Shown in pieces: positions 40,966-64,000 of a DNA stretch of 64,000 nt (its first letter is position 1; each line of letters begins with the position of its first letter). This DNA is from Neorhizobium galegae (lineage in GTDB: Bacteria > Pseudomonadota > Alphaproteobacteria > Rhizobiales > Rhizobiaceae), in NCBI RefSeq assembly GCF_021391675.1, contig NZ_CP090095.1, positions 811,501 to 875,500 on the forward strand, in the 5' to 3' direction. Under the pieces are notes generated by a model that saw only the letters and a program-made list of their open reading frames with translations, ran no database searches and was not told the DNA's origin. A program made the translations under genes and the position numbers.

Positions 40966-41291
40966 TCCAAATCAAACTGCACCGCCATCATCGGGGAAAC
41001 GGGGCGGGGTTCGATCCTAGAGGATAGCCGGTAAAGTTTGCCGGCAATTGATATCTGTCAACGTGGGAGTGTGTGGTGGTCGCTGCGGCGGTCGCGGATG
41101 GAGCGATGTCAGCGGCACCAAAGCGGTTGAAAAGCTTTCAGGAGATTTCGAAGAAATTTGGCTGGGGAACCTGGACGATAATCCAACGTTGTCCGCAGCC
41201 TTGAAATATCATAACATATTGCCAGGAATGAGCTTATTGGTCTAGAGGTGTTCCGGTTTACTGTTCCGGTAAGCTGCTCCGGGAGCCTTCG
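40966..41291. other. Intergenic region with the backbone-island junction
   Basis: These 326 nt hold the ATPase promoter region and the left edge of the island. A GCCGG-rich inverted repeat (GCCGGTAAAGTTTGCCGGC, 41026-41044) and the FixK-type box lie on the left; GTTCCGGT is repeated near the integrase (around 41250-41270). No tRNA is seen. A 65-codon frame at 41048-41245 begins inside the box and is rejected as a gene. Confidence 0.5.
41048..41061. promoter_or_regulatory. Perfect FixK/FnrN-type box upstream of the P-type ATPase
   Basis: TTGATATCTGTCAA matches TTGAY-N4-RTCAA. It is 82 nt upstream of the ATPase start codon on the minus strand. The box, with that on 27537-27550, is one of the two strict matches in the window. 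Confidence 0.65.
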
Positions 41292-43103
41292 ATGACCAGA
41301 CGTTCAAACCTCATCCGACGCGATGGCGGCACATATTACGCGCGGATCTACATCCCTTCAGATCTGCGAGATCAGTTCCCTAGTGAGGACAAAAAGGTCT
41401 CGTTGCGGACGAAGGATGAAGCGGTCGCAAAGCGACGGCTCAGCTTCGAACTCCAGAAATGGGACGCTGAGTTTGAAGACATGCGCGCTCGTCGCCATCT
41501 CACGGACGAGGATAGAGCCGTTGCGGTCTGGGAGCATTATGAAGCGCGGCTAAATCGAGATACGGAGAAGCGTCGCGCCATGCCGACAGATGCTGATCTC
41601 GAGAATGAGGTCGCACGGGTCTGGCAGCGTATCGATCGCGGCGAAATAAGGTCCGATGATCTTGTGGGTATGATCAACGGGTATGCAGACCTAGAGCTGT
41701 TGAAACGTGCCCGAGAGGATGACGCAAATCTCCGCGCCCGTCGATTGGCGGCTCTGAGGCGAGATTTGGCCACCGGGAGATATATGCTGGTTGATGAGGA
41801 GGTGCGTCAGTTCATAGAGCGGCATCTCTTGCTGGTAGACCACGGATCCGAACAGTTTCGCGAACTTGGCGCCCTGATGATGCGCGCCGACATTGAGGCG
41901 CTTGAGCGAACAGTCGAGCGGGATGTCGGCGACTACTCGGGGAGGCCCAAGGACCCGATCGTGAGGCCAGCCTTCGCCAAGCCACGCGAGACGGCGCCGC
42001 CTGGGCAATCGATCGCGGAACTCTTTGAGGTTTATGCCCGCGAAAACCCTCGCGGCGTCACAGCCGACACATTGGCTCAGGCTCGCCGCGATATCGGGTT
42101 ATTCGTAGACCATGTCGGCTCGACATTGCCCGCGTCAAAGATCGACAAGAAAGCTGTTCGAGAGTGGAAGGCACTTCTAATTCGCTATCCCGTTAAGGCT
42201 GTTGAGACGAAGGTTTTTGAAGGCATGAAGATCGCCCAGATTGTCACCCACAACGAATCAGTCGGCAAACCGGTCCTGAGCGCGAATACCGTGAATCGTT
42301 ACCTTTCCAACCTCGCCGCATTCTGCAGCTGGCTGGTTGGGCATGGATACATTGATGACAATCCCACCGAAGGAATGTTTCTGGCGAAAGACAAACGGAA
42401 GAAGGTCTATCCGTTTACAGTCGACCAGATGAACGCCCTATTCCGGTCCCCTTTGTTCGCGGGGTGTGCGAGTGATGGTTCACCTCGATTCTGGAACAAG
42501 CCGGGGAATGTCAGAATTCGTGACCATCGCTATTGGATACCGTTAATCATGCTTTACTCAGGCGCCCGACCTGGGGAGATTGCACAGCTCAGCCTTGCAG
42601 ACGTCCGAGAGGAACAGCAGACCTGGATCTTCGACATCACTGAAACCTCGGACGATGGCGATGAGGATATCAAGAGACTGAAGAACGACGGCTCTCGTCG
42701 TGTTGTGCCTGTCCACCGAGAGCTAATCAGCCTTGGCTTCCTAGACTACCTCGCAGCAATTCGTGGAGCAGGGCACACGCGAGTCTTTCCGTTAGCAATC
42801 CGCAATGATCGCGGTCAGATGTTATCCGACTTTAGCAGGGATTTTGGGCGTTACCTGGAGAAAATCAACCTCAAGAAAGGGAGGGGATTGTCACTTTATT
42901 CATTCCGCCACGGCGCCTTTGATGCAATGAGACGTGCCGGCTATCTGGATGAGCAGTTCAATTTTATCTTCGGACACGTCAGCAGCGGTAACCGGGTCAC
43001 CAAAGGATACGGTGTGTTGACCCAGGGCATGCTTGAGCAGCGGGCCAAGCTGGTCAATGCTATCGAGTACCCTGGCCTTGAGTTGGAACATTTGCAGCTG
43101 TGA
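41292..43103 (+). CDS. Tyrosine-type site-specific integrase
   Basis: The 603-residue recombinase begins TRRSNLIRRDGGTYYARIYI, a DUF6538-type N-terminal region, followed by a long core-binding part and a C-terminal catalytic domain (about 370-590). Box I Arg is in YSGARPGEIAQL; box II reads YSFRHGAFDAMR, with Tyr where many integrases have His before the Arg-His pair; FGHVSSGNRVTKGYG ends with a candidate catalytic Tyr. It probably integrates and excises the island. Its position at the left edge, reading inwards, supports this. No excisionase gene was seen beside it. Confidence 0.85.
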   Translation: MTRRSNLIRRDGGTYYARIYIPSDLRDQFPSEDKKVSLRTKDEAVAKRRLSFELQKWDAEFEDMRARRHLTDEDRAVAVWEHYEARLNRDTEKRRAMPTDADLENEVARVWQRIDRGEIRSDDLVGMINGYADLELLKRAREDDANLRARRLAALRRDLATGRYMLVDEEVRQFIERHLLLVDHGSEQFRELGALMMRADIEALERTVERDVGDYSGRPKDPIVRPAFAKPRETAPPGQSIAELFEVYARENPRGVTADTLAQARRDIGLFVDHVGSTLPASKIDKKAVREWKALLIRYPVKAVETKVFEGMKIAQIVTHNESVGKPVLSANTVNRYLSNLAAFCSWLVGHGYIDDNPTEGMFLAKDKRKKVYPFTVDQMNALFRSPLFAGCASDGSPRFWNKPGNVRIRDHRYWIPLIMLYSGARPGEIAQLSLADVREEQQTWIFDITETSDDGDEDIKRLKNDGSRRVVPVHRELISLGFLDYLAAIRGAGHTRVFPLAIRNDRGQMLSDFSRDFGRYLEKINLKKGRGLSLYSFRHGAFDAMRRAGYLDEQFNFIFGHVSSGNRVTKGYGVLTQGMLEQRAKLVNAIEYPGLELEHLQL

Positions 43104-46649: not shown

Positions 46650-47395
46650 CGCTTTACGACTGGCCCCGCGCCAGTGCCTTCGGACGGGTCATCCCCAAGA
46701 ACAAGATCTATGAACATGCGGGTGTCAATACCGCGCTCAAGGACCTGTTCGTACGCGAGGTGGACCAGATTATCTGGTCGCACAAGCTGGCACCGGAAAC
46801 GATCAATCTGCCCGCGACGAAGTCGGTGGCTGAAATCCAGGTGTTTCGGATCACGCAACGGGAAAAAACCCTCAGTACTGAAGCGCTGCGTGCCATCGAT
46901 CGTGCAATCCCGTTTCCATTGCTTTTCGAACTGTCGCATGGCGGCAAGATCAAGCTCGCCGCTGCTTATAAGCGCCCGAGCGACGCAGACAGCATGAAAT
47001 GGGTGTTGGGAGACTATTTCGAGAGCGAGTGGCTTCCAGAGGGTGGGCGACGGTCGGCACTGCCCGTGGCGTTGAACATGGGCGCGCTTTACGAGCAGCT
47101 CATCAGCCCGTTAGTCGAGGAGCAGACCGCCCGGTTGGTCCCCGGCGCGCAAACCGGCTTTGCGGAGGCCTCGCAGTCGTCATTCGCGGCGCCTGATATG
47201 CAGCCACTGTCGCTGGAGACCAAGATCGCCCTGGCGGAGGCGATAAAGGCCACGACCCGCGAGGTCAACCGGATCAAGGCGCGGCTCAGTCGCGAGAGAC
47301 AGTTCAACAAGCGCGTGGCGATCAATGCCGAGCTGCGCGCTGCCAAGGAAGAGTTGAAAAGATTGAGCGGAGACAGGGATGGCGAAGCCGAATGA
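46646..47395 (+). CDS. DUF4391 domain protein
   Basis: The 249-residue protein matches DUF4391 by its start LYDWPRASAFGRVIPKNKIY and internal KSVAEIQVFRITQREKTLST and FPLLFELSHGGKIKLAAAYK. The family is known mainly from operons with helicases and DNA methyltransferases, and its biochemical role is unknown. The last 60 residues form a helical, Arg/Lys-rich coiled coil. GTG 46646 overlaps the helicase stop (GTGA), and the 3' end overlaps the next small ORF, so the genes are tightly coupled. Confidence 0.85.
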   Translation: MTLYDWPRASAFGRVIPKNKIYEHAGVNTALKDLFVREVDQIIWSHKLAPETINLPATKSVAEIQVFRITQREKTLSTEALRAIDRAIPFPLLFELSHGGKIKLAAAYKRPSDADSMKWVLGDYFESEWLPEGGRRSALPVALNMGALYEQLISPLVEEQTARLVPGAQTGFAEASQSSFAAPDMQPLSLETKIALAEAIKATTREVNRIKARLSRERQFNKRVAINAELRAAKEELKRLSGDRDGEAE

Positions 47396-49676: not shown

Positions 49677-49686
49677 GGTCGCGACG

Positions 49687-51342
49687 ATGCATCAAGCCGA
49701 ACTCGCAACACTGCTCGACCAACTCATCTCGAACTGGGAGAGCGAGGTGGTGGAGTTCAAGCGTGGAAAAGATGCGTTTTCGAGCAGTGAACTCGGTAAA
49801 TATGTTTCGGCGCTGGCAAACGAGGCCAATCTGCGGGTGCGTGAGCGCGCCTGGTTGGTGTTCGGTGTCGAGGACGAGACACGGGTCGTGGTGGGCACCT
49901 CCTACAAGGAGAACCCCGCTCACCTGCAGGCCGATAAGATGCAGATCATCAACGGCACGGGCAGCTTCACGGTTCGTGATATCTATGTGCTGAACCACAA
50001 GGACGGCCGGGTCGTTCTTTTCGAGATCCCGGCTGCGCCGCGCGGCATGGCGATCAACTGGAACGGCCACTACTATGGCCGGGCCAATGAGAGCCTTGTG
50101 CCGCTGGGTCTCGACAAGCTGGACGAGATACGCGCACAGACGCTTGCTACAGACTGGACGGCTCAAGTTGTCGAAGGGGCCACGCTAGCCGATCTCGATC
50201 CGCAGGCGCTAAGAGTCGCGCGCGAGCGTTTCGCTGCCAAGCATGCGAACCGCTCCATTGCAGATGAGATCGCCGGCTGGAGCGATGCGACATTTCTCAA
50301 CAGGGCAAAGCTGACGCAGGATGGCGCGATGACGCGGGCCGCCCTGCTGTTGCTGGGCAAATCCGAATCTGCCTCGAGGCTCAACCCCCATCCGGTGGAG
50401 ATGACCTGGAAGCTCGAAGGAGAAGAGCGCGCCTACGAGCACTTTGGCCCGCCCTTCCTGCTGACATCGTCACAGGTCTTCGCCCGTATCCGCAATGTTC
50501 AGCTCCGACTTCTGCCGGAAAACGAACTGTTGGCCCACGAGGTGGCGAAATACGATCAAAAGGTCGTCCTGGAAGCGCTACACAACTGCATAGCCCATCA
50601 GGACTATGCCCGCCTGGCGCGCGTGATCGTGACGGAGCGACCGGATCGATTAATTATGGAGAATGAGGGTGGTTTCTTCGAAGGGCAGCCCGAGGATTAT
50701 GTTCTGCACGACCACGTGCCACGGCGCTATCGCAATCCGTTCCTGATTCAGGCAATGACCGAGCTGAACATGATCGACCATATGGGTTACGGCATTCAGG
50801 ATATCTATCGCCGTCAGCGCCAGCGCTTCTTTCCGTTGCCGGACTACGACCTCAGCGAGCCCAATGTTGTCCGCCTGACCATTCACGGCCGCATTGTCGA
50901 TGCCGCGTACAGCCAGCTTCTCATGCAACAGACCGGGCTGCCACTGGTAGATGTCCTTGCCCTGGACAGGGTTCAGAAGCAGTTGCCGATCACGGACGAT
51001 GCGATCCGCCACCTGAAGCAAAAGCATCTGATCGAAGGTCGGAAGCCGAATTTTTTCATATCTGCCAGCGTTGCGAATGCGACTTCGCAGAAGGCTCGTT
51101 ACATCAGGACGCGGGCGTTTGATGACCACCATTACGAGGAAATGATTGTTGGATTTCTAAGAGAGTTTGGTCAGGCCTCAAGAAAGGAAATCGACGACCT
51201 TTTGCGCAATAAGCTCAGCGAAGCGTTGAACGATTCGCAAAAGAAAAGCAAAATAGGCAATCTTTTGAGCGGCTTGAGGATTAAGGGTCGGATCCACAAC
51301 ATCGGATCTAAAGCTGCCCCCGAATGGCGCCTTATGGACTAA
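49687..51342 (+). CDS. AlbA_2/Schlafen-type ATP-binding protein
   Basis: From ATG 49687 the product has 551 residues (the frame is open 22 codons earlier, inside the mod gene). The N-terminal AlbA_2/divergent AAA_4 domain shows EVVEFKRGKDAFSSSELGKY and VLFEIPAAPRGMAINWNGHYYGR. A GHKL-like ATPase part follows (ALHNCIAHQDYARLARVIVT, MENEGGFFEG), and the C-terminus looks winged-helix. Such proteins are frequent in defence islands as regulators or effectors. It lies between mod and res, 10 nt after mod, an unusual insertion for a Type III system. Confidence 0.8.
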   Translation: MHQAELATLLDQLISNWESEVVEFKRGKDAFSSSELGKYVSALANEANLRVRERAWLVFGVEDETRVVVGTSYKENPAHLQADKMQIINGTGSFTVRDIYVLNHKDGRVVLFEIPAAPRGMAINWNGHYYGRANESLVPLGLDKLDEIRAQTLATDWTAQVVEGATLADLDPQALRVARERFAAKHANRSIADEIAGWSDATFLNRAKLTQDGAMTRAALLLLGKSESASRLNPHPVEMTWKLEGEERAYEHFGPPFLLTSSQVFARIRNVQLRLLPENELLAHEVAKYDQKVVLEALHNCIAHQDYARLARVIVTERPDRLIMENEGGFFEGQPEDYVLHDHVPRRYRNPFLIQAMTELNMIDHMGYGIQDIYRRQRQRFFPLPDYDLSEPNVVRLTIHGRIVDAAYSQLLMQQTGLPLVDVLALDRVQKQLPITDDAIRHLKQKHLIEGRKPNFFISASVANATSQKARYIRTRAFDDHHYEEMIVGFLREFGQASRKEIDDLLRNKLSEALNDSQKKSKIGNLLSGLRIKGRIHNIGSKAAPEWRLMD

Positions 51343-51406: not shown

Positions 51407-54400
51407 ATGAAGCTCAAATTCAAGGTTCAGCCGTACCAGACCAACGCCGTCGATGCCGTCGTCGATTGCTTCGCGGGCCAGCCCAAGAACGATAGCCTAT
51501 CCTATCGGATCGATCCAGGTCGTAGGGCACAGACAAGTGCATTCGAAGAGGGGTTCAAGAACGCCGACTTTGCTCTCAGTGAGCCGCAGGTCTTGGAGAA
51601 CATTCAAAAAGTTCAACGGCGCCAGAACTTGCCTCTGTCGCAATCCCTGACCGATTTCACCAGCTTCAACAACCGTGGTGAGCGCGTAGCCGTGGCTGGG
51701 GCTTACAAGAAGGACGCGCTTGCCGCGACCCGCGTCCACCTCGACGTAGAGATGGAAACCGGTACGGGCAAGACCTACTGCTACATCAAGACCATCTTCG
51801 AGATGAACAAGCGCTATGGCTGGTCAAAGTTCATCATTATGGTGCCGTCCATTGCGATCCGCGAGGGTGTCGCCAAATCACTGGAGATCACTGCCGACCA
51901 TTTCACCGAAAGCTATGGCAAGAAGGCCCGGTTCTTTATCTACAATTCCAAGCGCCTTCATGAGCTGGAGAGCTTCTCGTCCGACGCCGGCATCAACGTG
52001 ATGATCATCAATATCCAGGCGTTCAATGCGCGCGGTGCTGACAATCGCCGTATCTATGACGAGTTGGACGACTTCCAGTCGCGCAAGCCGATCGACGTCA
52101 TCGCGTCAAATCGGCCCATCATCATTCTCGACGAACCGCAGAAGATGGAAGGCGCGGCGACGATGGAGGCGCTGCCTAAGTTCAAGCCGCTGATGATCTT
52201 GCGCTACTCGGCCACCCACAAGACGCAGCACAGCCGCATCCACCGGCTCGACGCACTCGATGCCTATAACCAGAAGCTGGTGAAAAAGATCGCCGTGCGC
52301 GGCATCCATACGCGCGGGATGGCCGGCACCAATGCCTACCTCTATCTCGAAGGCATTGATATATCCAAGAAGGCGCCGGTCGCCCGCATCGAACTGGAGG
52401 TAAAGCTGGCCTCCGGGGAGATCAAGCGGCAACTTCGGCGCCTGGAGTTTAAGGATGATCTTTTCTCCCGATCCAGCGGCCTTGATCAATATCACGGATT
52501 TACGATCAGCCAGATCGATGCCGTCAGCGAAACAGTCGAGTTCACGAATGGCGTCGTACTTAAGGCTGGAGAGGCCAATGGCAACGTCTCCGAGCGCGAT
52601 ATTCGCCGCATCCAGATCCGCGAGACCATCAAGGCGCATTTCGACAAGGAGAAGCAGCTCTTCTCTCGTGGCATCAAAGTGCTTTCGCTGTTCTTCATCG
52701 ATGAAGTGGCGAAATACCGAGATTACGCTCAAGCAGACGAGAAGGGCGAGTATGCTCGCGTCTTCGAGGAGGAATACAAGCTTCTGAAGGAGGAATACCT
52801 GTCGGAACTGGCGATCGACAACGAGGCTTACCGGAAGTATCTGGCCGGTATCGACGCGGCGGCCACCCACAACGGTTATTTCTCGATCGATAAGAAAACC
52901 AACCGCCTGAGAGACCCGGACATTGCCAAGGCCGGCGATAACAAAGGGCAGTCCGAGGACCCGGACGCCTACGACCTCATCCTGAAAGACAAGGAACGGC
53001 TGCTGTCGTTCACTGAGCCCACGCGCTTTATCTTCTCGCACTCGGCATTGCGCGAGGGGTGGGACAACCCGAACGTCTTCGTGATGTGTATGCTGAAGCA
53101 TAGCAACCACGAGATCTCACGTCGACAGGAAGTCGGCCGTGGACTGCGCTTGAGCGTCGATCAGAACGGCGATCGGATGGACAGCCCTGCAACGGTCCAC
53201 GACATCAACGTCCTGACGGTCGTCGCCAGCGAGAGCTATAGGAACTTCGTCGACGCCTTGCAGAAGGAGATGATCGAAGCTCTCACGGCACGCCCGCGCC
53301 AGGCGAATGAAGAATATTTCAAGGGCAAGGTGCTGCAGACCGAGGACAGAGGCGTCGAGGTATCGCCGGACATGGCCGCAGGTATCGAGTTCTACCTGGT
53401 GCAGAACGGATATGTGGATCGGCAGAAGAACATCACCGAAAAGTACCAGAACGCCCGTCAAAGCGGTACGATTGCAGAACTGCCCGATGATTTGAAACCC
53501 TATACAGACCAGATCCTGGTCCTTGTCGATGGTGTCTTCAACGAACGGCAGTTGCCGAAGCTGCAGGATGACCGCCGTTCCAAGACCAATCCCCTGAACG
53601 ACAACTTTCACCGTAAAGAGTTCCAGGAGCTTTGGGGCAGGATCAACCAAAAGGCCGTCTATCGGGTAGAGTTCGATCCTGGTGAGCTGGTCCGCAAGAG
53701 TGTCAGCGCGCTCGACAGTCACCTTCGCGTGACGCCGCTGCAGTATACCGTGACGAGCGGTATCCAACAGGACGGATTGACCTACGATGCGATCGGAGAC
53801 GGCAAGAGTTTCCGCGAGAAAGAGCAGGCAACCTACCAGGCGCAAACCGTCACTTCACTGGTGAAGTACGATCTGCTTGCCAAGCTTGCCGAGGGCACGC
53901 AACTCACGCGGCATACAATCGCGGAGATCTTGTCGAAAATCCAGCCGGGGGTGTTTGCCCAATTCCAGCAGAACCCGGAACATTTCATCAGCGAGGCGTC
54001 CCGTCTGATCATCGAGCAGAAGGCGACGATGGTCATTGAGCGATTGACTTACGATGCCGTATCGGAGCGGTACGAGACGAATATCTTCACCGCGAGCCAG
54101 ACCGTTCAAGACTTCTCCAGGGCGAGCGAGAAGCTGAAGAAGCACGTCTACGACTATGCCCTCCTCGATTCGGACACCGAGCGCAAATTCGTGGAGAAGT
54201 TGGATACGAGCAACGAAATCGTCGTCTACGCGAAACTTCCCAGAGGCTTCTCGATCCCCACGCCTGTCGGCGATTACAACCCGGATTGGGCGATCTCGTT
54301 CAAGGAAGGTTCGGTCCGACATATCTATTTCGTCGCTGAGACCAAGGGCACCTTGTCATCGCTGAAGTTGCGCGAATTTGAGAGCACGAAGATCGAATGT

Positions 54401-54508
54401 GCCCGCAGGTTCTTCGAGAAGATCGGAAACTCGATGACAACTGACCAGGTAAAGTATGACGTAGTCACCGATTACTCGCGGCTGATGGATGTTGTGAGGA
54501 GCGCGTGA
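51407..54508 (+). CDS. Type III restriction enzyme Res-like helicase-nuclease
   Basis: The 1033-residue subunit combines an SF2 motor with a C-terminal nuclease. Walker A is [18 protein letters not shown] (about 114-131), motif [12 protein letters not shown] (about 241), motif [14 protein letters not shown], and motif [18 protein letters not shown] (about 571). Near the end, NPDWAISF and YFVAETKGT form a PD-(D/E)xK nuclease (about 957 and 977). It should cleave DNA in complex with Mod after ATP-driven translocation or sliding. It starts 64 nt after the AlbA_2 gene and is followed after 25 nt by an Mrr-like gene. Confidence 0.9.
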
Positions 54509-54533: not shown

Positions 54534-55445
54534 TTGATCCCGGATTACCAGAGCCTAATGCTGCCTGTGCTGCGTCTCGCTGCCGTGGGTGAAACCCGCG
54601 TTGCTGACGTCGCCGAGCGCCTTGCCGATGACATGGGGTTGACCCCAGAGGAGCGCGACGAATTGTTGCCAAGCGGCCGCCAGCGCGTGCTCCACAATCG
54701 CATTCATTGGGCGAAGTTCTATATGAGCAAAGCCGGACTGATTGCCTCGCCAGCGCGGGGACGTTTCGTTGCGACAGAAAAGGGAAAGACACTTTTAGCG
54801 ACCTCGCCGGAGCGTATCGACGTTGCTGTCCTTATGCGGCACCCTGAGTTTCGCGAGTTTTACAGGAATGAAGGTGGAGGCGCAGAGCAGGAGGCCTTCA
54901 TCGCGAAGTCGCTCGATACCGCTTCATCCCGGACAACACCGGAGGAGCAGATCGACGCTGCCCACGCGGCACTGCAAGCAGCTCTCCGCGACGACCTGCT
55001 TCAGCGTATCATCGCCAACAGCCCGGCCTTCTTCGAGCAACTGATCGTCGACCTCCTGGTTGCCATGGGGTATGGCGGCAGCCACAAGGACGCTGCTGCC
55101 CAGCTCGGTCGCTCCGGCGACGGTGGTGTGGATGGCATCGTGAACGAGGATCGTCTCGGCCTCGATCGCATCTACGTCCAAGCCAAACGTTACGCGCCTG
55201 GCAATCCAGTTGGCCGACCGGATGTAAATGGGTTCGTCGGAAGTCTCGTCGGCCTCGGTGCCAGCAAGGGCGTATTCGTTACCACCTCCACGTTCAGTCA
55301 GCCGGCGCGTGATTACGTCAAGCATCTCGCTCAGCGGATCATTCTCATCGACGGCCAGGAACTGGGCTGTGTTCCGGCGTGCAAATTTGACCCCGTTGGC
55401 GGGGTAATCGGCGTCCAATTTTGCCCCCCCTCAGATTTCATCTGA
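54534..55445 (+). CDS. Mrr-like restriction endonuclease, C-terminally truncated by IS21
   Basis: The 303-codon frame encodes an Mrr N-terminal region (DYQSLMLPVLRLAAVGETRV), a wHTH-like part and a catalytic domain with GRSGDGGVDGIVNEDRLGLD and IYVQAKRY (Asp and Gln-x-Lys of the Mrr fold). Native sequence ends at about 55367 after LIDGQEL; the last 26 codons derive from the left end of the IS21 element, replacing the usual C-terminal segment. Active-site residues are intact, so the truncated protein may keep some activity, but this is uncertain. Mrr enzymes cut methylated DNA; the co-location with Mod is unusual. Confidence 0.75.
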   Translation: MIPDYQSLMLPVLRLAAVGETRVADVAERLADDMGLTPEERDELLPSGRQRVLHNRIHWAKFYMSKAGLIASPARGRFVATEKGKTLLATSPERIDVAVLMRHPEFREFYRNEGGGAEQEAFIAKSLDTASSRTTPEEQIDAAHAALQAALRDDLLQRIIANSPAFFEQLIVDLLVAMGYGGSHKDAAAQLGRSGDGGVDGIVNEDRLGLDRIYVQAKRYAPGNPVGRPDVNGFVGSLVGLGASKGVFVTTSTFSQPARDYVKHLAQRIILIDGQELGCVPACKFDPVGGVIGVQFCPPSDFI

Positions 55446-55466
55446 CCATCCGGCTTTTGACGGCGG

Positions 55467-56978
55467 ATGGAGCGGGAGTTGAAGCGAGTGGATACGATTG
55501 CGCGTGTTCGACGGGCCTTCCATGTGCAGGGCTGGTCGGTGAAGAAGATTGTCCGGGAACTCCACGTGTCGCGCAACACGGTTCGCAAGATTCTGCGTTC
55601 CGACGAGACCGATTTTGCCTATGAACGCGAGCGACAACCGCTGCCGAGGGTCGGAGCCTGGAAGGCCGAGATCGAGCGGTTTCTGGTTGCCAATGAGGGC
55701 AAGCCGTCGCGTGAACGGCTAACGCTGATCCGGATTTACGAGGAGGTTCGGGCACTCGGCTACGATGGCAGTTATGACGCGATCCGGCGATACGCCAAGA
55801 CCTGGGCGAAGAACCGGGGAGCCGTGACGGCGGAAGCCTATGTGCCCCTCTATTACGCGCCAGGAGAAGCCTACCAGTTCGACTGGAGCCACGAGATCAT
55901 TCTGGTCAACGGGGTGACAACGACCGTGAAGGTCGCGCACGTCCGGCTCTGCCACAGCCGGATGATGTTCGCCCGAGCCTATATGCGTGAGAGCCAGGAG
56001 ATGGTGTTCGATGCCCATGACAAGGCCTTCGCCTTCTTCCGTGGCACCTGCACGCGCGGCATCTACGATAACATGAAGACTGCGGTCGAGGCGGTGTTCG
56101 TCGGCAAGGAGCGACAATACAATCGCCGCTTCCTGCAGATGTGCAGCCACTATCTGGTCCATCCCGTTGCCTGCACGCCCGCATCCGGATGGGAGAAGGG
56201 ACAGGTCGAGAACCAGGTCGGTCTCGTGCGCGAGCGCTTCTTCACGCCACGCCTACGGGTCAAAAGCCTGGAGGAGCTGAACGTCTGGCTGCTCGACAAA
56301 TGCGTCGCCTACGCCAAGGCACACCGCCATCCCGAGCAGACCGAGCGGATGATCTGGCAGATTTTCGAGGAGGAGCGCGGCAGCCTGGTGCACTACGTTG
56401 GACCGTTCGATGGCTTCCACTGCGTTCCCGCCTCGGTGTCGAAGACCTGCACGGTCCGCTTCGACAACAACAAATACTCGGTCCTATCGACGGCGGTCGG
56501 CCGCCCTGTTGAGGTTCACGCCTATGCCGAGAAGATCGTCATCAGGCAGGACGGCGTGAACGTCGGTGAGCATCCTCGTTGCTTTGGCCGTGGCGAGGCG
56601 ATCTACGATCCCTGGCATTACGTCCCTGTTCTGGCTCGTAAACCCGGTGCTTTGCGCAATGGTGCGCCGTTCCGGGAATGGGTCTTACCCGCAGCGATGG
56701 AGAAAGTGCGCCGGCGGCTGAAGAGCGTCCATGATGGTGATCGGCAGATGGTCACCATCCTCGGCTGTGTTCCCACCGACGGTCTGGCGGCTGTCGATGC
56801 TGCCTGCCAGGAGGCTTTGGATCACGGCGTCTGCTCAGCCTCGGTGATCATCAACATTCTGGCCCGCAGCCGTGATCCGGCTCCGGCCGCAACCCTGCAA
56901 ACCCCGGATGCGCTGCGTCTGACCCATGAACCGGTCGCCGATTGCGCACGCTATGACAGCCTCAGGAGGGCAAGCTGA
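55467..56978 (+). CDS. istA: IS21-family transposase IstA
   Basis: The 503-residue transposase has an N-terminal helix-turn-helix ([20 protein letters not shown]), a DDE catalytic core with candidate residues in [21 protein letters not shown] and [12 protein letters not shown], and a C-terminal region typical of IstA. It cuts and joins the element ends with the help of IstB. Its stop overlaps the istB start by one base. The gene is intact, so the IS may still move. Confidence 0.94.
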
Positions 56979-57712
56979 TGGAACGCACGCAAGTTCTCGA
57001 ACTGATGAGCACGCTGAAGCTCTATGGAATGCGCAGCGCCTACGACGAGGTCATGGGCAACGGCATCAAACGGCAGCACGAACCGCCGCGCATCGTCGGC
57101 GATCTCTTGCAATCGGAGATCGCCGAGAAGCAGGCACGCTCCATTCGCTACCAGCTCAGCATCGCCAAGCTGCCGCTCGCCAAGGACATCGATGACTTCG
57201 ACTTCGCCGATACGCCCGTCAATGAATCCCTGGTGCGGGAGCTGGCAACCGGCACCTTCGTCGCCGATCAGCGCAATGTCGTTCTCGTCGGCGGCACGGG
57301 AACCGGAAAGAGCCACCTCGCCATCGCAATTGCCCGTGCGTTGATCCGCAACGGAACACGCGGGCGCTTCTTCAACGTCGTCGATCTGGTCAATCGGTTG
57401 GAAACGGAAACGCGTAGCGGCAAGCAAGGGCGGACGGCCGACTATCTCAACCGTCTCGACTTCATCATCCTCGACGAACTCGGATACCTGCCTTTCGCCC
57501 AGGCCGGAGGTCAGCTCCTGTTCCATCTGATCAGCAGGCTCTACGAGCGCACGTCGATCATCGTCACCACGAACCTGGCGTTCGGCGAATGGCCATCAGT
57601 GTTCGGGGACGCCAAAATGACGACAGCACTTCTGGACCGTCTGACCCATCATTGCGAGATTGTCGAAACCGGAAACGAGTCCTGGCGCTTCAAGAACCGC
57701 TCTCAAGGCTAA
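56978..57712 (+). CDS. istB: IS21-family helper ATPase IstB
   Basis: The 244-residue AAA+ ATPase carries Walker [21 protein letters not shown] (about residue 103) and Walker [15 protein letters not shown] (about 165). IstB loads onto target DNA and directs IstA. The start overlaps the istA stop (TGATG). Length is normal for the family and no frame damage is visible. Confidence 0.94.
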
Positions 57713-58087
57713 AGCCGAAGACGATCATCACCCGCACTTGGCCTACCCTCTGCAACCCCGGCCAGCGCCGGGCAGGCCAAGCGCTGATCTACACCACCAG
57801 GGGGGCAAAATTGGATGCCGATAAGGGGGGAATTTTGGACGCCGATTGACAGCTAGCTGTTCGCGTTCTCAAAGGCGCGCATGCGATGCTCGGCTTGCTG
57901 GCAACCGATCCACATTGGCGCAAAGAGAGCTGCGTTATCGCCAATGCGAACAACCTCATCAGAAGCGGCCAACGGGTCAGCCTCAGGCACCGATGCGCTC
58001 TGGTAAATGTTACAGTCCAGGCCTTAGACTGCACGTTGTGCGAATCGAGCATGCAACTCAATAGCGCTAGTCGGGGAGGGCAGAGGA
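57713..58087. other. IS right end and residual sequence before the DUF6361 gene
   Basis: 57713-57851 is the IS right end. The remaining 236 nt contain no supported gene; a short frame on the plus strand (57853 onward, with LATDPHWRKESCVIANANN) may be the tail of a disrupted gene but is not recognisable. A GGGGAGGG ribosome site for the next gene is at about 58074-58081. Confidence 0.45.
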
Positions 58088-59293
58088 TTGGAGCCAGCAT
58101 TTGGTTGGGTAAGTCTTATGCCCAAGGCTTTAGCTCGGGCCCGCGCGCAGCTGAACGAAAAAGGTCAAGGCATACGCGACGAAGTGGGTTTTCTACATCT
58201 CCACCAGCAATACGCTGACCGTTTCTTTCCAGGCACCTCGGTGTTGCACACCCGCCTACGATACGCGCTTTTCGTACCGTGGCAGTTTCTGGACCAATCT
58301 GGCAAATCTTCATCGAGCGCCCAAGATGCGATGAAGCGGGCTGAGATCGGCCTCGCAAAACGGCTGAAGAATAGTGGGGAACATGGTGTCATCGGCGGTC
58401 TCACGTGGCCTCGTTTGGCGGATCAACCGCCTTCCAGCACCTACTGGTCCGCTTTGGGCGCCTGGGGCATTTTGCGGCGCGACGGACGCAATCGCGTTCC
58501 AAACCGTGGGACCGTTCACACCCGCCTCTCTGCCTTACGTCCCACATTAGATGACGAGCACCGCCCGCTCATCGATGTCGAGGCGCCGTTCGTCGGTCTG
58601 CCCCACCCCCCCAAGAACTGGTCGGCCGATGCGCCTCTATCCTTCAATCTAAGAGACGTCGAGCGTGAGTTTCTCCGCGATCGATTAAGCAAAATCCCGG
58701 CGCCTGAGCCTTTCAAACACATGTCCCTTTTCAGTCAGCTGGCCCTCCACGAGATCGACCCACCGTCGTCTCTTTGGCATAAGACGATCATCCAACTTGC
58801 CGGTCCGGACGCTGCGCCTCTCAGGCGAGCGCGCGCGATGGCCGCCCTCGCCGCGATTGGTCGCGGTGTATATGCAGCCCTTGTCGAGGATCGCCGCGAG
58901 CATTTGGATCGTCGTGAGACGCCGCGGCTGCACCGCGCCCAACTTGAGCGGCTGCTCAAGGACCATGGCCCACGCGCGACCTCTGAGCTGAACAGCGCCA
59001 ATCTACATCTGGTCGAGGATGATATCGGCCTCTTGCCGCCTCGACTTCGCACCTTGCTCGCTGAGACGCTGGATTGGGTCCACGAGGGAGCGACTGACCC
59101 GTCGGTTCTGGTCGACGCCTATGAAGCGGCTGAGGGCCGCAAAGGCTTGCGCTCACGACTACCCGATACCGCGAGCGCGCGAGCCCGACGCGCCGAGTGG
59201 GAATCCAGCGACCATCCCGTCGGCTACCCACTCCACTATCGCTGGGGCACGGTGAGCGGACTGCTGTCTGATCTTCGCGGGCCGCGTCCATGA
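58088..59293 (+). CDS. DUF6361 family protein
   Basis: The 401-residue protein starts with TTG at 58088 after GGGGAGGGCAGAGGA. The N-terminus matches DUF6361: FGWVSLMPKALARARAQL, EVGFLHLHQQYADRFFPG, TSVLHTRLRYALFVPWQFLD. The rest is helical, with WPRLADQPPSSTYWSALGAW and no obvious catalytic motif. No function is established. Its stop overlaps the start of the phospholipase-D-like gene (ATGA) and that gene's stop overlaps the helicase start, so the three form a translationally coupled unit. The family recurs in such helicase-PLD settings, suggesting a defence or DNA-sensing role. Confidence 0.8.
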   Translation: MEPAFGWVSLMPKALARARAQLNEKGQGIRDEVGFLHLHQQYADRFFPGTSVLHTRLRYALFVPWQFLDQSGKSSSSAQDAMKRAEIGLAKRLKNSGEHGVIGGLTWPRLADQPPSSTYWSALGAWGILRRDGRNRVPNRGTVHTRLSALRPTLDDEHRPLIDVEAPFVGLPHPPKNWSADAPLSFNLRDVEREFLRDRLSKIPAPEPFKHMSLFSQLALHEIDPPSSLWHKTIIQLAGPDAAPLRRARAMAALAAIGRGVYAALVEDRREHLDRRETPRLHRAQLERLLKDHGPRATSELNSANLHLVEDDIGLLPPRLRTLLAETLDWVHEGATDPSVLVDAYEAAEGRKGLRSRLPDTASARARRAEWESSDHPVGYPLHYRWGTVSGLLSDLRGPRP

Positions 59294-59865
59294 GCGGAGC
59301 AGCGGCTTGGCAGGTGACCAGTTATCTGGACGCGCTGCGTCCACAACCGAGTTGGCAGGCGGACCTAGCGATCATCGCCTCGTATTCAGCCGATCCGATT
59401 TCAATCGTCGCGGCCTTGCTCGCCCTTGTGGGGCGCGACGATGAGGATCGTCCGGCTGCTCGTCGTGATCTCGCCGATGCGATCGAAGCTGCAAGGGACA
59501 AATTCCGAGTTGTCATTCAGAGGGGCCGCCTCGGTAAGATGGCGCGAACACCCCGTCTAACGGGGATCTTGGACCAGTTTTTGCGAGACGTCGCCTTCGA
59601 CGAGCGCCACCAAAGCTGGCATCCTAAAACCGCTCTGGTGAAGGTCTCTTTAGATAAGCACGTCGAGTGGCGCTTGTGGATCGGCAGTCGCAACCTCACG
59701 GCCCAGGAGAACCGCGATCTCGGCTTTGTACTGGTCGCACGGCCCGGCGAACAGGGGCGCCGGATCCCGGGCATTGACAACATTGCTGCTGCTTTGGCCG
59801 AACGCGCAGTGCTTCCCGGCGTTTCAGCGCGCCGGCTAGTCGCTGAGATCGCCACACTCAAGTAG
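59290..59865 (+). CDS. Phospholipase-D-like nuclease, N-terminal half (ends at in-frame TAG)
   Basis: A 191-residue product with the first HKD-type motif: HPKTALVKVSLDKHVEWRLW followed by IGSRNLTAQENRDLG (His-x-Lys and GSxN). It stops at TAG (59863-59865). The same frame continues without interruption for 20 codons to a second half with its own HKD motif, so this is one gene of about 601 codons broken by a single amber codon. PLD-like proteins of this type cleave nucleic acid phosphodiesters using two HKD motifs, so the fragment alone is probably inactive. ATG 59290 overlaps the DUF6361 stop. Confidence 0.8.
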   Translation: MSGAAAWQVTSYLDALRPQPSWQADLAIIASYSADPISIVAALLALVGRDDEDRPAARRDLADAIEAARDKFRVVIQRGRLGKMARTPRLTGILDQFLRDVAFDERHQSWHPKTALVKVSLDKHVEWRLWIGSRNLTAQENRDLGFVLVARPGEQGRRIPGIDNIAAALAERAVLPGVSARRLVAEIATLK

Positions 59866-59928
59866 AAGGCTCCACCGGGCGTTCGGGTAGACCGCCTCCA
59901 AATCAGCACCGGGAAGAGCGAGTGGGCT

Positions 59929-61095
59929 TTGCCGAGCCTGCCCAAAGCAGTCGACGCGCTCACAGTTGTGAGCCCATTCTTGGATGCTGGCTTTCTTCGC
60001 CATGTGGCCAAGACCGCCTCACGTAGCGGGCGCCAACTGCTCTCGACTCGATTTGAAATCGAACGGCTCGCGGCGACCTGCCGAATATTCGGAGACTCTT
60101 TGGCGCTGGATGCGCCTGATTATCCGCCGAGCGCGTTTGAGTCATCGGATCTTGTCCATCCAACGCCCGCCTCTGCGGCAGAGGAGGGCGAGGAGCTCGG
60201 CCGCGGCCTGCACGCCAAACTCTTGCACATCCGCCAAGGCGATCGGCGACGTCTTTGGATGGGTAGCGCGAACGCTACTCAACGCGCCTGGTCCGGGCGC
60301 AACGTCGAGATCATCGCCGAGCTTTCCATCGACGAGTCGGTCGAGGCTGGCCTCATGAGCCTTGTCGCAGAGGCGCGGCCGATCCGGTGGGAAGACGGCA
60401 CTGCGCTGAAAGATGTTGAGGCCCAGAAGGATGAGCTTGAACGCGCACGCGTCGAGGTTTCCGCTCATTGGAAGGGCGAGATCGTGTGGGACAAAGAAAG
60501 CATTCGATTGCGCCACTCATCCATTCTCCACCCTTCAGACACCCGCATCCACCTGGAGGCCGGGCTAATCACCGGCGGTTTGGAGACTTGGCCTGCCGGT
60601 GAAACCGAACTTGATCTCGGCCCCTACCAGACGGCGGACCTGACCGAACTTGTCCAGCTACGGCTGACATTGGGCGACGCAAGCTGCGAGTGGATCATGC
60701 AAGCGCCGGCCACGCCTCCGTTCGGCGCCGAGCGAGACCGAGCAGCCTTTATGAGTTCGATGGGCGCACGTGAGTTCTTGCTTTGGGTGGCTGACACCAT
60801 GCGCGGCGCCTCTGCTCCGCCAGATGAACCGGATTGGACAAACGACGATCCCTCGCGAAGCCGGCCTACTAAGGCGCCGCCGACTTGGATGGCTGATTTG
60901 CCGACCCAAGAAGAGGTTTTCGCCACCTGGTCCCGGTCCCCCGTTATCTACAAAACGATTCAGCACCGAGTCAGCAGATATCTACCGGTGCTTCTCGAGC
61001 ATACGCGAACCATGGATCCTGATGGCCACACGCAACTGCTGTTGTTCGCCCAGATGTGGGCCGTGTGCGAACAAGGTTTGGGGGCGCCGCTGTGA
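59929..61095 (+). CDS. Phospholipase-D-like nuclease, C-terminal half
   Basis: This part supplies the second HKD-type motif, LHAKLLHIRQGDRRRLWMGS with ANATQRAWSGRNVEI, and a beta-rich C-terminal region (about 389 codons). It is in the same frame as the first half, separated by TAG plus 21 sense codons. The TTG at 59929 is the first in-frame candidate start and lacks a ribosome site, so separate translation is doubtful; read-through or a nonsense-mutated gene are the main options. Its stop overlaps the GTG start of the downstream helicase. Confidence 0.75.
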   Translation: MPSLPKAVDALTVVSPFLDAGFLRHVAKTASRSGRQLLSTRFEIERLAATCRIFGDSLALDAPDYPPSAFESSDLVHPTPASAAEEGEELGRGLHAKLLHIRQGDRRRLWMGSANATQRAWSGRNVEIIAELSIDESVEAGLMSLVAEARPIRWEDGTALKDVEAQKDELERARVEVSAHWKGEIVWDKESIRLRHSSILHPSDTRIHLEAGLITGGLETWPAGETELDLGPYQTADLTELVQLRLTLGDASCEWIMQAPATPPFGAERDRAAFMSSMGAREFLLWVADTMRGASAPPDEPDWTNDDPSRSRPTKAPPTWMADLPTQEEVFATWSRSPVIYKTIQHRVSRYLPVLLEHTRTMDPDGHTQLLLFAQMWAVCEQGLGAPL

Positions 61096-64000
61096 GGTTG
61101 GCGCGGGAGTTCCAGACCGCGACCGTGAACGCTGCGCTTGCCGCCTTCGCTACCAAAGGGAGCCGCCGCCGCTATCTGGTGGCCGATGAAGTCGGCTTGG
61201 GCAAAACCGTTGTCGCGCGCGATGTGGTTGAAGCATTAAGCCGTAAGGCCGGTCGCCCCTTGGTTGTCTACTACATTGCCAATGGCTCAGCGGTTGCTCA
61301 CCAGAACAAACCTCGCCTCGTTGAGTTTCTTGAGAAAGCTGAGATGAAGAAGGCGGTTCGAACGCCAGACCGCCTTTCGCTGGTTGCGGTTAGTACGCCG
61401 CCAGACGCGTCGGTCGCCATATACGCCTTGTCGCCCGACACTTCGTTTCCGCGGAATAGTCGGTCGAGCCTGAGCGGAGGAAAGGCGGTCGAGCGCGCCT
61501 TCGTCGGTCAGTTGCTTCAAAGAGCCTACCCGTCCGTGCTTCCCAAGCTGCCGACGAACTTCCTTCAGCTGCAAGCGACCTCAGGATGGTATGGCGCCTT
61601 AGCGGTCGCGCGTAAACGGATCGACGATGCGCCGCCGGGTCTTGTCGCCCGGTATCGGGACGCGCTCCAACGAGAGTTCGCAGAACTGAAGATTTCGGGA
61701 GCGGCGCCATCCTTCGCCGGCCGCCTTGTCGATCTGGCTTTGCTCAATCAACGGGCTTTCATAGGTCGTCTTCGCCGGGCACTTTGCCTCGCGTGTCTGA
61801 TCCATCAGCCGCCAGACATCATCATTTTGGACGAGTTTCAGAAGTATCGCGATCTACTTGAGCGCGAAGAGTCTGTCGATCCGCTGATGGCGCAGCTGTT
61901 GAAGGGCAACGGCAAGAGGCCGCCGGCGCTCCTGCTATTGTCGGCGACGCCTTACAGACTGTTTGCGTCGCGGTGGGAAGAAAGCCAGGGTGTTCAGGCC
62001 CACCGAGAGTTTTTCGAATTGGTCGATTTTCTGGCGGGCGACGAAGTCAAGGTCGAGGCGCAAGCGCGCTTCAAAGCCTTCGGCGATAATCTCCGGCTTC
62101 TTGTGCAGGCCCCCTCAGCAGAGCGCACGCCGCTTATCGTAGAGGCGGCCGCTTTACGAGACCAACTTCAGGCGCTTCTTTCGCCAGTGATCGGGCGGAC
62201 GGAACGCGACGGCTTCACGCGTGGTCACGGCAACCTTGAACCGAACCTCCGTCGCCTGCCGGCCGCTTCAGAGGTCGCTGACGTCGCAGTTTATCGCCAC
62301 CTCGTTCGCTCGAGCGAGCCGAAGCGCAAAGCGGACGCCTTAGCATACTGGTCCTCCGTGCCGCTACCGGCTCAGGCCCTCGGTCGGCGGTATGCAATTT
62401 CTCGGGATCGCATCTTCAAACCCATGCGCGGCTTGACAGCGTTGACGCGACGGCGGCGTGACCAGCTGGCCCCTGTAAAGTGGCCGGATGCGAAATTGAG
62501 GGCCTTGGCGGCTACAGCGCCGGCCGAGAAGCTCGCCCTGCCGTGGATCGCGCCGTCACTCCCATGGTGGGATTTGAGCGGTGCATGGGCTGAGCAAAAC
62601 CAAGAGACCAAGCTTCTGTTGTTCAGCCGATTTAAGGCGACCCCACCAGCCGTCGCCAGCTTGTTGAGCTTCGGTGTCGAAGCGCGGTGGATCGACCGGC
62701 GCGGAGGTTATGAGAAGGCGTACGCTCGACGGAAGATTAAATTGTCAGGCCCGCCTGGTCCAGTTATGGCCGCCTTCCATCCCTCGATCTGGCTTATTCG
62801 AAACACCGACCCAGCGACCGCTCCCGATCTGTCTGGCGCGGGCGTGCGTCGCTGGGTGCGGAAGACGTTAAAAGAGGCGCTGCGTGCGCTCAGGATAGAC
62901 GTCGTCCGCTCGAGCGTGAAAAAACGCAAGCGGCGTCGATCCATCGGCCGTGTTCTCTCCGGGATCGAGCAACGCGCCGGTTTGACCGAGCGCTCCGCAA
63001 ATGCATGGGCGGTCGTTGTCGAGCATGACCGGATGGCCAAGACCTCTGTCCAGGCTTGGCGCGAGGCGGAGCCCGTGAACTGGATATCGCCCCGTGAACT
63101 CGAGGATCTCGTCACCTACGCCATCGCCGCGCCTGGCGTCATTGTCGGGCGGGCGCTGTGGCGTCACGCGGCAGACACGCTCAACATTGACACGTACCCT
63201 TGCGTGGTTCGACTGAGTTGGCAGGGCTTGCGCCCTTACCTCGACAATCCGATATTATTGTCTGCGATTGGTGGCGCCAGCGCCGTCGATGGTATCTTGG
63301 CGGCGACCTTCGCTGGGAATTTGGAGAGCGTGCTCGACGAGCACCTCTGGATCCGGAGTTCCTCCCAAGAAGGCGTCGAGGCGCTGGCCAAAGACCTGCA
63401 ATCGTCGCTCCGTCTCGTCACCGGCGGTTTCAGCTTCCATGCGCTCGGCGAATCCGAGCGATTGCGCCTTCGCTGCCATGCCGCGATGCCATTTGGCGAC
63501 GCTGAGGCGGCCCCGCCCCTTAAGGCTGGCGCCCCAGCCCCAGAGATTGAGGAGGATCTCGGTCCAGTCCGACCTGACGAGATCCGTCAGAGCTTCAACT
63601 CACCATTCTGGCCCTATATTCTAGCGACTACGTCTGTCGGCCAGGAGGGGCTAGATTTTCACACTTGGTGTTCGCGAGTGGTTCATTGGGATCTACCCTC
63701 CAATCCGCTCGACCTGGAGCAGCGGGAAGGACGGATCCAGCGCTATGGCGGCCTCTCCATTCGGCGTCGACTAGGTTCGGTGATGAGAGACGACGTGTTC
63801 GCCGATTGTAAGGCCGCAGCATCGCCCTGGCGTCGCCTCGCCAGCATCGCCGAGGCGCGATTGGCTGAGAAGGGGGGACTGAGCCCGTGGTGGATTCTAC
63901 CCGAGGCACGAGTGACGCGCGAGGTATTTGACCGCCCCTTTGGCCGTGACGTTCATCGCTACCAGGTGCTTCGAGAGCAGCGCTTCCTATATCGGCTGGC
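61092..64000 (+). CDS. Large SF2 helicase, partial at window end
   Basis: A GTG start at 61092 overlaps the PLD-like stop (GTGA). The frame stays open through the window edge, at least 969 codons. Motifs: LVADEVGLGKTVVARDVVEA (Walker A), IIILDEFQKY (motif II), LLLSATPYRLFA (motif III), ATTSVGQEGLDFHTW (motif V) and LEQREGRIQRYGGL (motif VI). These mark an SNF2/DEAD-like helicase that translocates on DNA with ATP. With DUF6361 and the PLD-like nuclease it forms a three-gene module. The C-terminus lies beyond the window, so any fused nuclease is unseen. Confidence 0.9.
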   Translation, partial: MRLAREFQTATVNAALAAFATKGSRRRYLVADEVGLGKTVVARDVVEALSRKAGRPLVVYYIANGSAVAHQNKPRLVEFLEKAEMKKAVRTPDRLSLVAVSTPPDASVAIYALSPDTSFPRNSRSSLSGGKAVERAFVGQLLQRAYPSVLPKLPTNFLQLQATSGWYGALAVARKRIDDAPPGLVARYRDALQREFAELKISGAAPSFAGRLVDLALLNQRAFIGRLRRALCLACLIHQPPDIIILDEFQKYRDLLEREESVDPLMAQLLKGNGKRPPALLLLSATPYRLFASRWEESQGVQAHREFFELVDFLAGDEVKVEAQARFKAFGDNLRLLVQAPSAERTPLIVEAAALRDQLQALLSPVIGRTERDGFTRGHGNLEPNLRRLPAASEVADVAVYRHLVRSSEPKRKADALAYWSSVPLPAQALGRRYAISRDRIFKPMRGLTALTRRRRDQLAPVKWPDAKLRALAATAPAEKLALPWIAPSLPWWDLSGAWAEQNQETKLLLFSRFKATPPAVASLLSFGVEARWIDRRGGYEKAYARRKIKLSGPPGPVMAAFHPSIWLIRNTDPATAPDLSGAGVRRWVRKTLKEALRALRIDVVRSSVKKRKRRRSIGRVLSGIEQRAGLTERSANAWAVVVEHDRMAKTSVQAWREAEPVNWISPRELEDLVTYAIAAPGVIVGRALWRHAADTLNIDTYPCVVRLSWQGLRPYLDNPILLSAIGGASAVDGILAATFAGNLESVLDEHLWIRSSSQEGVEALAKDLQSSLRLVTGGFSFHALGESERLRLRCHAAMPFGDAEAAPPLKAGAPAPEIEEDLGPVRPDEIRQSFNSPFWPYILATTSVGQEGLDFHTWCSRVVHWDLPSNPLDLEQREGRIQRYGGLSIRRRLGSVMRDDVFADCKAAASPWRRLASIAEARLAEKGGLSPWWILPEARVTREVFDRPFGRDVHRYQVLREQRFLYRL

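What the first reader, a model, noticed from the sequence alone, without database searches (positions are those of the whole stretch)
58088..64000. DUF6361 / PLD-like nuclease / helicase triad as a candidate anti-phage module
Three genes overlap by 4 nt each (ATGA at 59290, GTGA at 61092), a sign of obligate co-expression. One is an uncharacterised DUF6361 protein, one a double-HKD PLD-like nuclease, one a helicase of at least 969 aa with motifs I, II, III, V and VI. They sit in an integrase-bearing island beside a restriction operon. Nuclease plus motor plus unknown sensor is the logic of known defence systems, but no methyltransferase is present, so self/non-self discrimination must be different from restriction-modification. 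The role is inferred.
Basis: partly seen in the sequence, partly recalled or inferred. Interest (0 to 1): 0.8.

Follow-up and report, generated by a model that had tools for sequence, protein, structure and literature searches.

The report
Azaca phage-defence operon, nuclease gene interrupted
This is a copy of a known bacterial anti-phage gene trio called Azaca, carried on a mobile island in a soil bacterium, but its middle (nuclease) gene is cut by a stop codon, so this copy is probably switched off.

Summary
The triad is real and already named: it is the Azaca anti-phage system, ZacA (DUF6361), ZacB (PLD-like) and ZacC (SNF2/RapA-like helicase); PADLOC E 4.5e-78, 1.4e-43 and 2.2e-49 (two ZacB pieces), 1.5e-242. 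Papers list its mechanism as unknown. The overlaps are right; 58 of 63 assessable relatives keep an intact A-B-C trio, and 11 of 11 DUF6361-positive genomes in two samples have it contiguous. (2) The island ends at a 17-bp repeat, at 41159 and at the 3' end of tRNA-Gln just beyond the window. (3) IS21 separates the trio from a type III/Mrr block. Hints: ZacB is a two-lobed PLD fold without the HKD aspartate in either motif, as in Tdp1 (recalled); ZacA is all-helical, no solved fold found. Host: Neorhizobium, by one flanking gene.

The parts
41159..41175 (.). left attachment repeat (attL) of the island, 17 bp, identical to the 3' end of tRNA-Gln(CTG) that lies just beyond the window (window-scale 64312-64328)
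   Evidence: longest exact match of the tRNA region in the window, one place only; tRNA-Gln found by ARAGORN; right-flank homology of four same-genus genomes starts exactly at 64312
41292..43103 (+). island integrase (DUF6538 + phage integrase)
   Evidence: Pfam; Phage_integrase is below its curated cut-off (21.2 of 27.1 bits), DUF6538 above
55404..57849 (+). IS21-family element (istA 55467-56978, istB 56978-57712) between the restriction block and the triad; ends approximate
   Evidence: NCBIfam IS21 transposase for istA; inverted terminal repeats; istB named from its place and P-loop, no family search run on it
58088..59293 (+). zacA (DUF6361), 401 aa, TTG start behind a GGGGAG-type ribosome site; the TTG is at the same place in L007, L008 and L009
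   Evidence: PADLOC ZacA 4.5e-78, PF19888, start context
59290..61095 (+). zacB, two-lobed PLD-like phosphodiesterase gene, interrupted
   Evidence: PADLOC ZacB on both pieces; one frame with one internal stop
59863..59865 (+). in-frame TAG stop inside zacB, between PLD lobe 1 and lobe 2
   Evidence: absent from the other 10 of 11 sampled trios and from L007-L009
61092..64000 (+). zacC, SNF2/RapA-like SF2 helicase; continues to 64157 outside the window, 1021 aa in all
   Evidence: PADLOC ZacC 1.5e-242; full length in L004

Best explanation
The triad is an Azaca anti-phage operon (zacA-zacB-zacC) at the tRNA-proximal end of a 23.2-kb defence island integrated into tRNA-Gln(CTG) of a Neorhizobium. 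Most likely mechanism (inferred): ZacC is a DNA-tracking SNF2/RapA-type motor that surveys DNA; ZacB is the phosphodiesterase effector, its two PLD lobes forming one active site; ZacA is a helical partner that holds or gates them. Self/non-self would rest on a DNA structure or replication intermediate rather than on methylation, as in Hachiman. In this copy zacB is cut by a stop between the lobes, so no full effector is made, and ZacC, whose start overlaps the zacB stop, would also be poorly translated; the copy is probably off. Shown: identity, gene order, overlaps, the stop as read in this assembly, the island ends. Inferred: the mechanism and the loss of function. The confidence below is for the identity and the frame as read; I put the mechanism at about 0.45 and 'off in the living strain' at about 0.6.
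Against: No experiment. dN/dS after the stop (0.117 against L009; 0.156 and 0.125 against L007 and L008) is like that before it (0.093; 0.149, 0.149) and that of intact pairs (0.10-0.16), so there is no footprint of long inactivity. The stop may be a sequencing error; among 60 genomes searched, 36 of this genus, only this one has ZacA, so no second copy could be checked. Nuclease activity of ZacB is inferred: the PLD fold also serves lipid enzymes and, by Foldseek's first hit, polyphosphate kinase, with low whole-chain TM scores (0.19-0.33 by query in the rows with E up to 3.8e-05), and the canonical aspartate is absent. The correlation of A, B and C has no control, and shared species history raises it.
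Confidence: 0.9

Rival explanations
1. The stop is a base-calling or assembly error, and this Neorhizobium has a working Azaca system.
For: One lesion in three genes; no relaxed selection after it; ZacA and ZacC fully open.
Against: The assembly looks good (3 contigs, 99.98% complete), but no read data could be seen.
Confidence: 0.3
2. The stop is real but tolerated: lobe 1 (191 aa) and a re-initiated lobe 2 are made as separate chains and pair, or lobe 1 pairs with itself as single-lobe PLD nucleases do (recalled).
For: The stop falls at the lobe boundary; both pieces look to be under purifying selection; an open frame of 388 codons begins at TTG 59929.
Against: That TTG is the first listed start of the second piece and would drop about 22 residues, including the first strand of lobe 2; no clear ribosome site before it (by eye); none of the other 10 of 11 sampled trios has a stop inside ZacB.
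Confidence: 0.06
3. The triad is a kind of restriction-modification or a DISARM derivative that borrows the island's type III methyltransferase.
For: Mod and Res are on the same island; the ZacC helicase C motif resembles DrmD.
Against: The best DrmD match is a stretch of 44 residues; no DrmB profile matched and DrmC only at E 0.0032; the closest relatives sit next to quite different partners.
Confidence: 0.03

Closest known systems
Azaca (ZacA, ZacB, ZacC), Millman et al. 2022 as cited in PMC10952713 and PMC13321033; ZacC named in PMC12278908 (passages seen)
   Same: All three proteins match the PADLOC profiles; order and overlaps as in relatives
   Different: zacB has an in-frame stop in this copy
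Hachiman (HamA nuclease + HamB helicase; PMC12278908, start of abstract and passages seen)
   Same: A nuclease and an SF2 motor with no methylation step: what it may work like
   Different: HamA is a D-E(X)K nuclease (DUF1837) with a Ski2-like helicase; Azaca has a PLD fold, an SNF2/RapA-like motor and a third, unrelated protein
DISARM (DrmA/B/C/D)
   Same: PLD-like protein plus SNF2-like helicase; DrmA and DrmB lie next to Azaca in L007
   Different: No DrmB match and only short DrmA/DrmD helicase-motif matches in the triad, and no methyltransferase in it
SauUSI / NgoAVII R protein (PLD nucleases of ATP-dependent restriction enzymes)
   Same: PLD part found by Foldseek, 205-232 alignment columns
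   Different: TM by query 0.18-0.19; ZacB is a single chain with both lobes, and its helicase is a separate protein
Tdp1 (tyrosyl-DNA phosphodiesterase)
   Different: 10-14% identity; other PLD enzymes tie in Z; ZacB has about 225 further C-terminal residues

Membership tests
Azaca | ZacA (DUF6361-type) protein | tested here: met
   PADLOC 4.5e-78 over 1-397 of 401
Azaca | ZacB PLD-like protein | tested here: met
   both pieces match ZacB, profile 7-182 and 225-581 of 586
Azaca | ZacC helicase | tested here: met
   1.5e-242; 850 bits over 11-1017 of 1019 for the full gene. The profile also rings in 6 of 14 control genomes, so weak matches to it mean little; this one is not weak
Azaca | gene order A-B-C, overlapping | tested here: met
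   overlaps here; same order in 11 of 11 sampled genomes by coordinates
working Azaca system | all three reading frames open | tested here: not met
   TAG inside zacB
working Azaca system | protects cells against phage | not testable with these tools
   no bench work; protection by Azaca in Millman et al. 2022 is recalled, that paper is not held
PLD superfamily | two-lobed PLD fold | tested here: met
canonical HKD nuclease | HxKxxxxD in each motif | tested here: not met
   D at that place in 0 of 69 first motifs and 0 of 70 second motifs found in 70 ZacB
DISARM | DrmA, DrmB, DrmC profiles and a methyltransferase in the operon | tested here: not met
   only short helicase-motif matches to DrmA/DrmD; DrmC 17 bits against a cut-off of 133
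Type III R-M | Mod and Res subunits in the triad | tested here: not met
   Mod and Res are separate genes at 47661-49676 and 51407-54508

The most novel reading that the evidence does not exclude
Azaca does not cut DNA as an HKD endonuclease but works at DNA ends or adducts: ZacB is a Tdp1-type (HKN) two-lobed phosphodiesterase that acts on 3' ends or protein-blocked ends made during phage replication, delivered by the ZacC motor and gated by ZacA, a helical protein with no solved relative found.
Probability: 0.12. Interest if true: 0.6.

Novelty: new member of a known kind. Interest (0 to 1): 0.3.

Why it matters
Azaca's mechanism is listed as unknown in the two papers seen that speak of it. 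The alignments give testable handles: two conserved HxK...GSxN sites without the HKD aspartate, a motor of SNF2/RapA type, and DUF6361 as an all-helical protein found in these samples only inside the trio. The copy here may also be a natural example of a defence system caught at, or just before, loss.

Tried and rejected
Papers (open-licence library only). 'ZacABC' 0; 'DUF6361' 0; PADLOC/Zac/phage defence, 89 papers, 0 uses of Zac in the 20 listed; ZacA/ZacB/ZacC, 504 papers, the 20 listed unrelated; Zac with phage terms, 682 papers, 0 uses in the 3 listed; 'Azaca' as a word start, 190 papers, the 40 listed mostly chemistry; Azaca/phage/DefenseFinder, 229 papers, 3 listed; 'Azaca' with 'phage', 12 papers, all listed, passages seen in seven; Mokosh/phospholipase D/helicase, 37 papers, 12 listed. 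Millman et al. 2022 is not held. No paper on the mechanism of Azaca was seen in these. One of the two papers that call it unknown (2026) also lists Hachiman as unknown although PMC12278908 explains it, so that listing is weak. PMC12839542 (passages) does not mention DUF4391 or Tdp1.

L040 looked like a ZacA fusion; it is ZacA run into an unrelated gene with B and C missing, so most likely a deletion scar or assembly join. The long ORFs of L086 come from starts placed too far upstream. Considered and set aside without a test: recoding of TAG. Rejected: the triad borrowing the island's Mod (see rivals).

Caveats on counts. One search kept the best 80 of 95 loci and starts from ZacA peptides, so it says nothing about B or C without A. 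In 'intact' means by ORF length (A 380-560 aa, both ZacB halves in one ORF, C 950 aa or more); 17 of 80 loci were set aside because the contig ends within 4.9 kb of zacA, some of which also look broken (L032, L033, L061). The genome samples overlap in part. The ZacC and ZacB profiles ring in 6 and 5 of 14 control genomes, ZacA and DUF6361 in 0. Neighbour survey: 11 of 80 loci were dropped as near-duplicates, up to two upstream and one downstream ORF of 170 aa or more were picked (175), and 46 over 700 aa were left out, leaving 129; 8 of the 46 were scanned apart, of which 6 matched PADLOC at 1e-10 (3 of them only by helicase motifs) and 2 matched nothing. PADLOC profiles are redundant and one search counts profiles, not proteins hit. 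ORFs were picked by length in both sets, so some are not genes, and the control is smaller (44). The three dN/dS comparisons share the window sequence.
Full report
WHAT IS THERE. The three genes lie on the + strand: 58088-59293 (401 aa, TTG start), 59290-61095, and 61092 onward to 64157 on the same contig (1021 aa). The 4-nt overlaps ATGA and GTGA are as reported. The middle gene is not open: the frame from 59290 has TAG at 59863-59865 and then stays open to 61095.

WHAT IT IS. PADLOC names the three proteins ZacA (4.5e-78), ZacB (1.4e-43 and 2.2e-49 for the two pieces) and ZacC (1.5e-242). Zac proteins are those of Azaca: PMC12278908 lists 'Azaca (ZacC)' among helicase-bearing defence systems (passages), PMC10952713 puts a PLD-like domain in Mokosh and Azaca, citing Millman et al. 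2022 (passage), and PMC10482375 and PMC12926258 list its mechanism as unknown (passages). That Millman et al. showed protection by Azaca is recalled; the paper is not held. Pfam DUF6361 covers only the first half of this ZacA (64 bits).

HOW GENERAL. A scan of named genomes with a ZacA alignment gave 80 loci, the best of 95. Of 63 with enough contig, 58 have an intact A-B-C trio by ORF length and 5 are broken (L038, L040, L067, L077, L085); 17 run off the contig. Pairwise distances of A, B and C agree at r 0.983 (AB), 0.979 (AC) and 0.989 (BC) over the 58, as expected if the three travel together, though shared species history raises such values. In two partly overlapping samples DUF6361 was found in 7 of 289 and 5 of 398 genomes, the window's own in both, and in 0 of 14 control genomes. 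All 11 distinct positives have ZacB and ZacC, side by side by their coordinates. So in these samples DUF6361 means Azaca. Among the 11, only the window's ZacB has an internal stop; ZacC is interrupted or cut by a contig end in G552, G351, G123 and G088.

THE STOP. It falls at residue 192, a column kept in 69 of 70 ZacB relatives, between the lobes of the predicted fold: helix 180-188 comes before it and strand 198-205 after it. The closest relatives L007, L008 and L009 have one uninterrupted frame of 602, 603 and 601 codons. Against L009, dN/dS is 0.093 before and 0.117 after the stop (0.149 and 0.156 against L007, 0.149 and 0.125 against L008); whole-gene values against L009 are 0.149 (A), 0.109 (B) and 0.119 (C), and intact pairs give 0.100-0.164 for B. 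The lesion is therefore recent, a sequencing error, or tolerated. Of 60 genomes searched, 36 of this genus including this one, only this one has ZacA, so no second copy of the island could be checked. If real, the stop removes lobe 2, and the ribosome-free stretch should weaken zacC, whose start overlaps the zacB stop (inference).

THE ISLAND. A 17-bp perfect repeat lies at 41159 and at the 3' end of tRNA-Gln(CTG) (window-scale 64312), and an integrase gene starts 133 bases after the start of the left copy. In four same-genus genomes (G001, G002, G015, G023) homology to the right flank starts exactly at 64312, and the 13-14 kb fetched from each shows no match to the island; left-flank homology lies about 0.1, 0.1 and 1.3 kb away in three of the four and was not found in G002. 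The 23.2-kb island carries an HKD+SNF2 helicase with a DUF4391 gene, type III Mod, a Schlafen/AlbA-type gene, type III Res, Mrr, IS21, and then Azaca. L009 has Azaca at the same tRNA-Gln, but with a DRT9-like reverse transcriptase and its PolA partner upstream. L007 has DrmA and DrmB upstream. L008 has, some kilobases upstream, proteins of a GTPase-associated system by Pfam, with no PADLOC match for the two proteins tried there. Across loci, 146 PADLOC profiles were matched at 1e-20 among 129 neighbour ORFs; among 44 ORFs from the host chromosome outside the island, none. RepB, a plasmid protein, is also a neighbour in 8 of 129, so not every copy sits in a chromosomal island. Host: the flanking exopolyphosphatase is 98% identical to Neorhizobium proteins; one gene, so the genus is likely rather than proven.

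VERDICT. A well-founded observation of a known system. The extra value lies in the interrupted effector, the exact island ends, and the HKN-like signature.

Noticed in passing
window 43359-47395: A fused HKD+SNF2 helicase (PADLOC C3a139, 6.2e-128) overlaps a DUF4391 gene by 4 nt, ahead of the type III genes: a second PLD-plus-helicase unit on the same island.
   Followed up: partly
window 54534-55445: The last codons of mrr lie inside the IS21 left end (about 55404), so IS21 seems to have clipped the Mrr C-terminus beyond its catalytic domain.
   Followed up: partly
window 49621-51342: A Schlafen AlbA_2 / HATPase_c_4 protein is encoded between type III Mod and Res; the ORF as listed overlaps the end of Mod, but its true start may be further down.
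   Followed up: no
L051 2113-8930; ORFs of the same 1113-aa length upstream in L055-L060, L064, L065 and downstream on the minus strand in L017, L023, L028, L029, L031: A 1113-aa SNF2/ResIII helicase, in several loci with a UvrD/PD-(D/E)XK protein, sits next to Azaca in two divergent Azaca groups and in opposite orientations. Families were checked for L051 and L017 only and DNA homology for some of the others; the rest is by length. A repeated, unexplained partner.
   Followed up: partly
L009 5479-8794: A DRT9-like reverse transcriptase (UG9) and an RT-associated PolA gene precede Azaca at the same tRNA-Gln: the same attachment site with a different defence cargo.
   Followed up: partly
L067, L038, L077, L085, L040: Other decayed Azaca loci: frame breaks or losses in 5 of 63 assessable loci.
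   Followed up: partly
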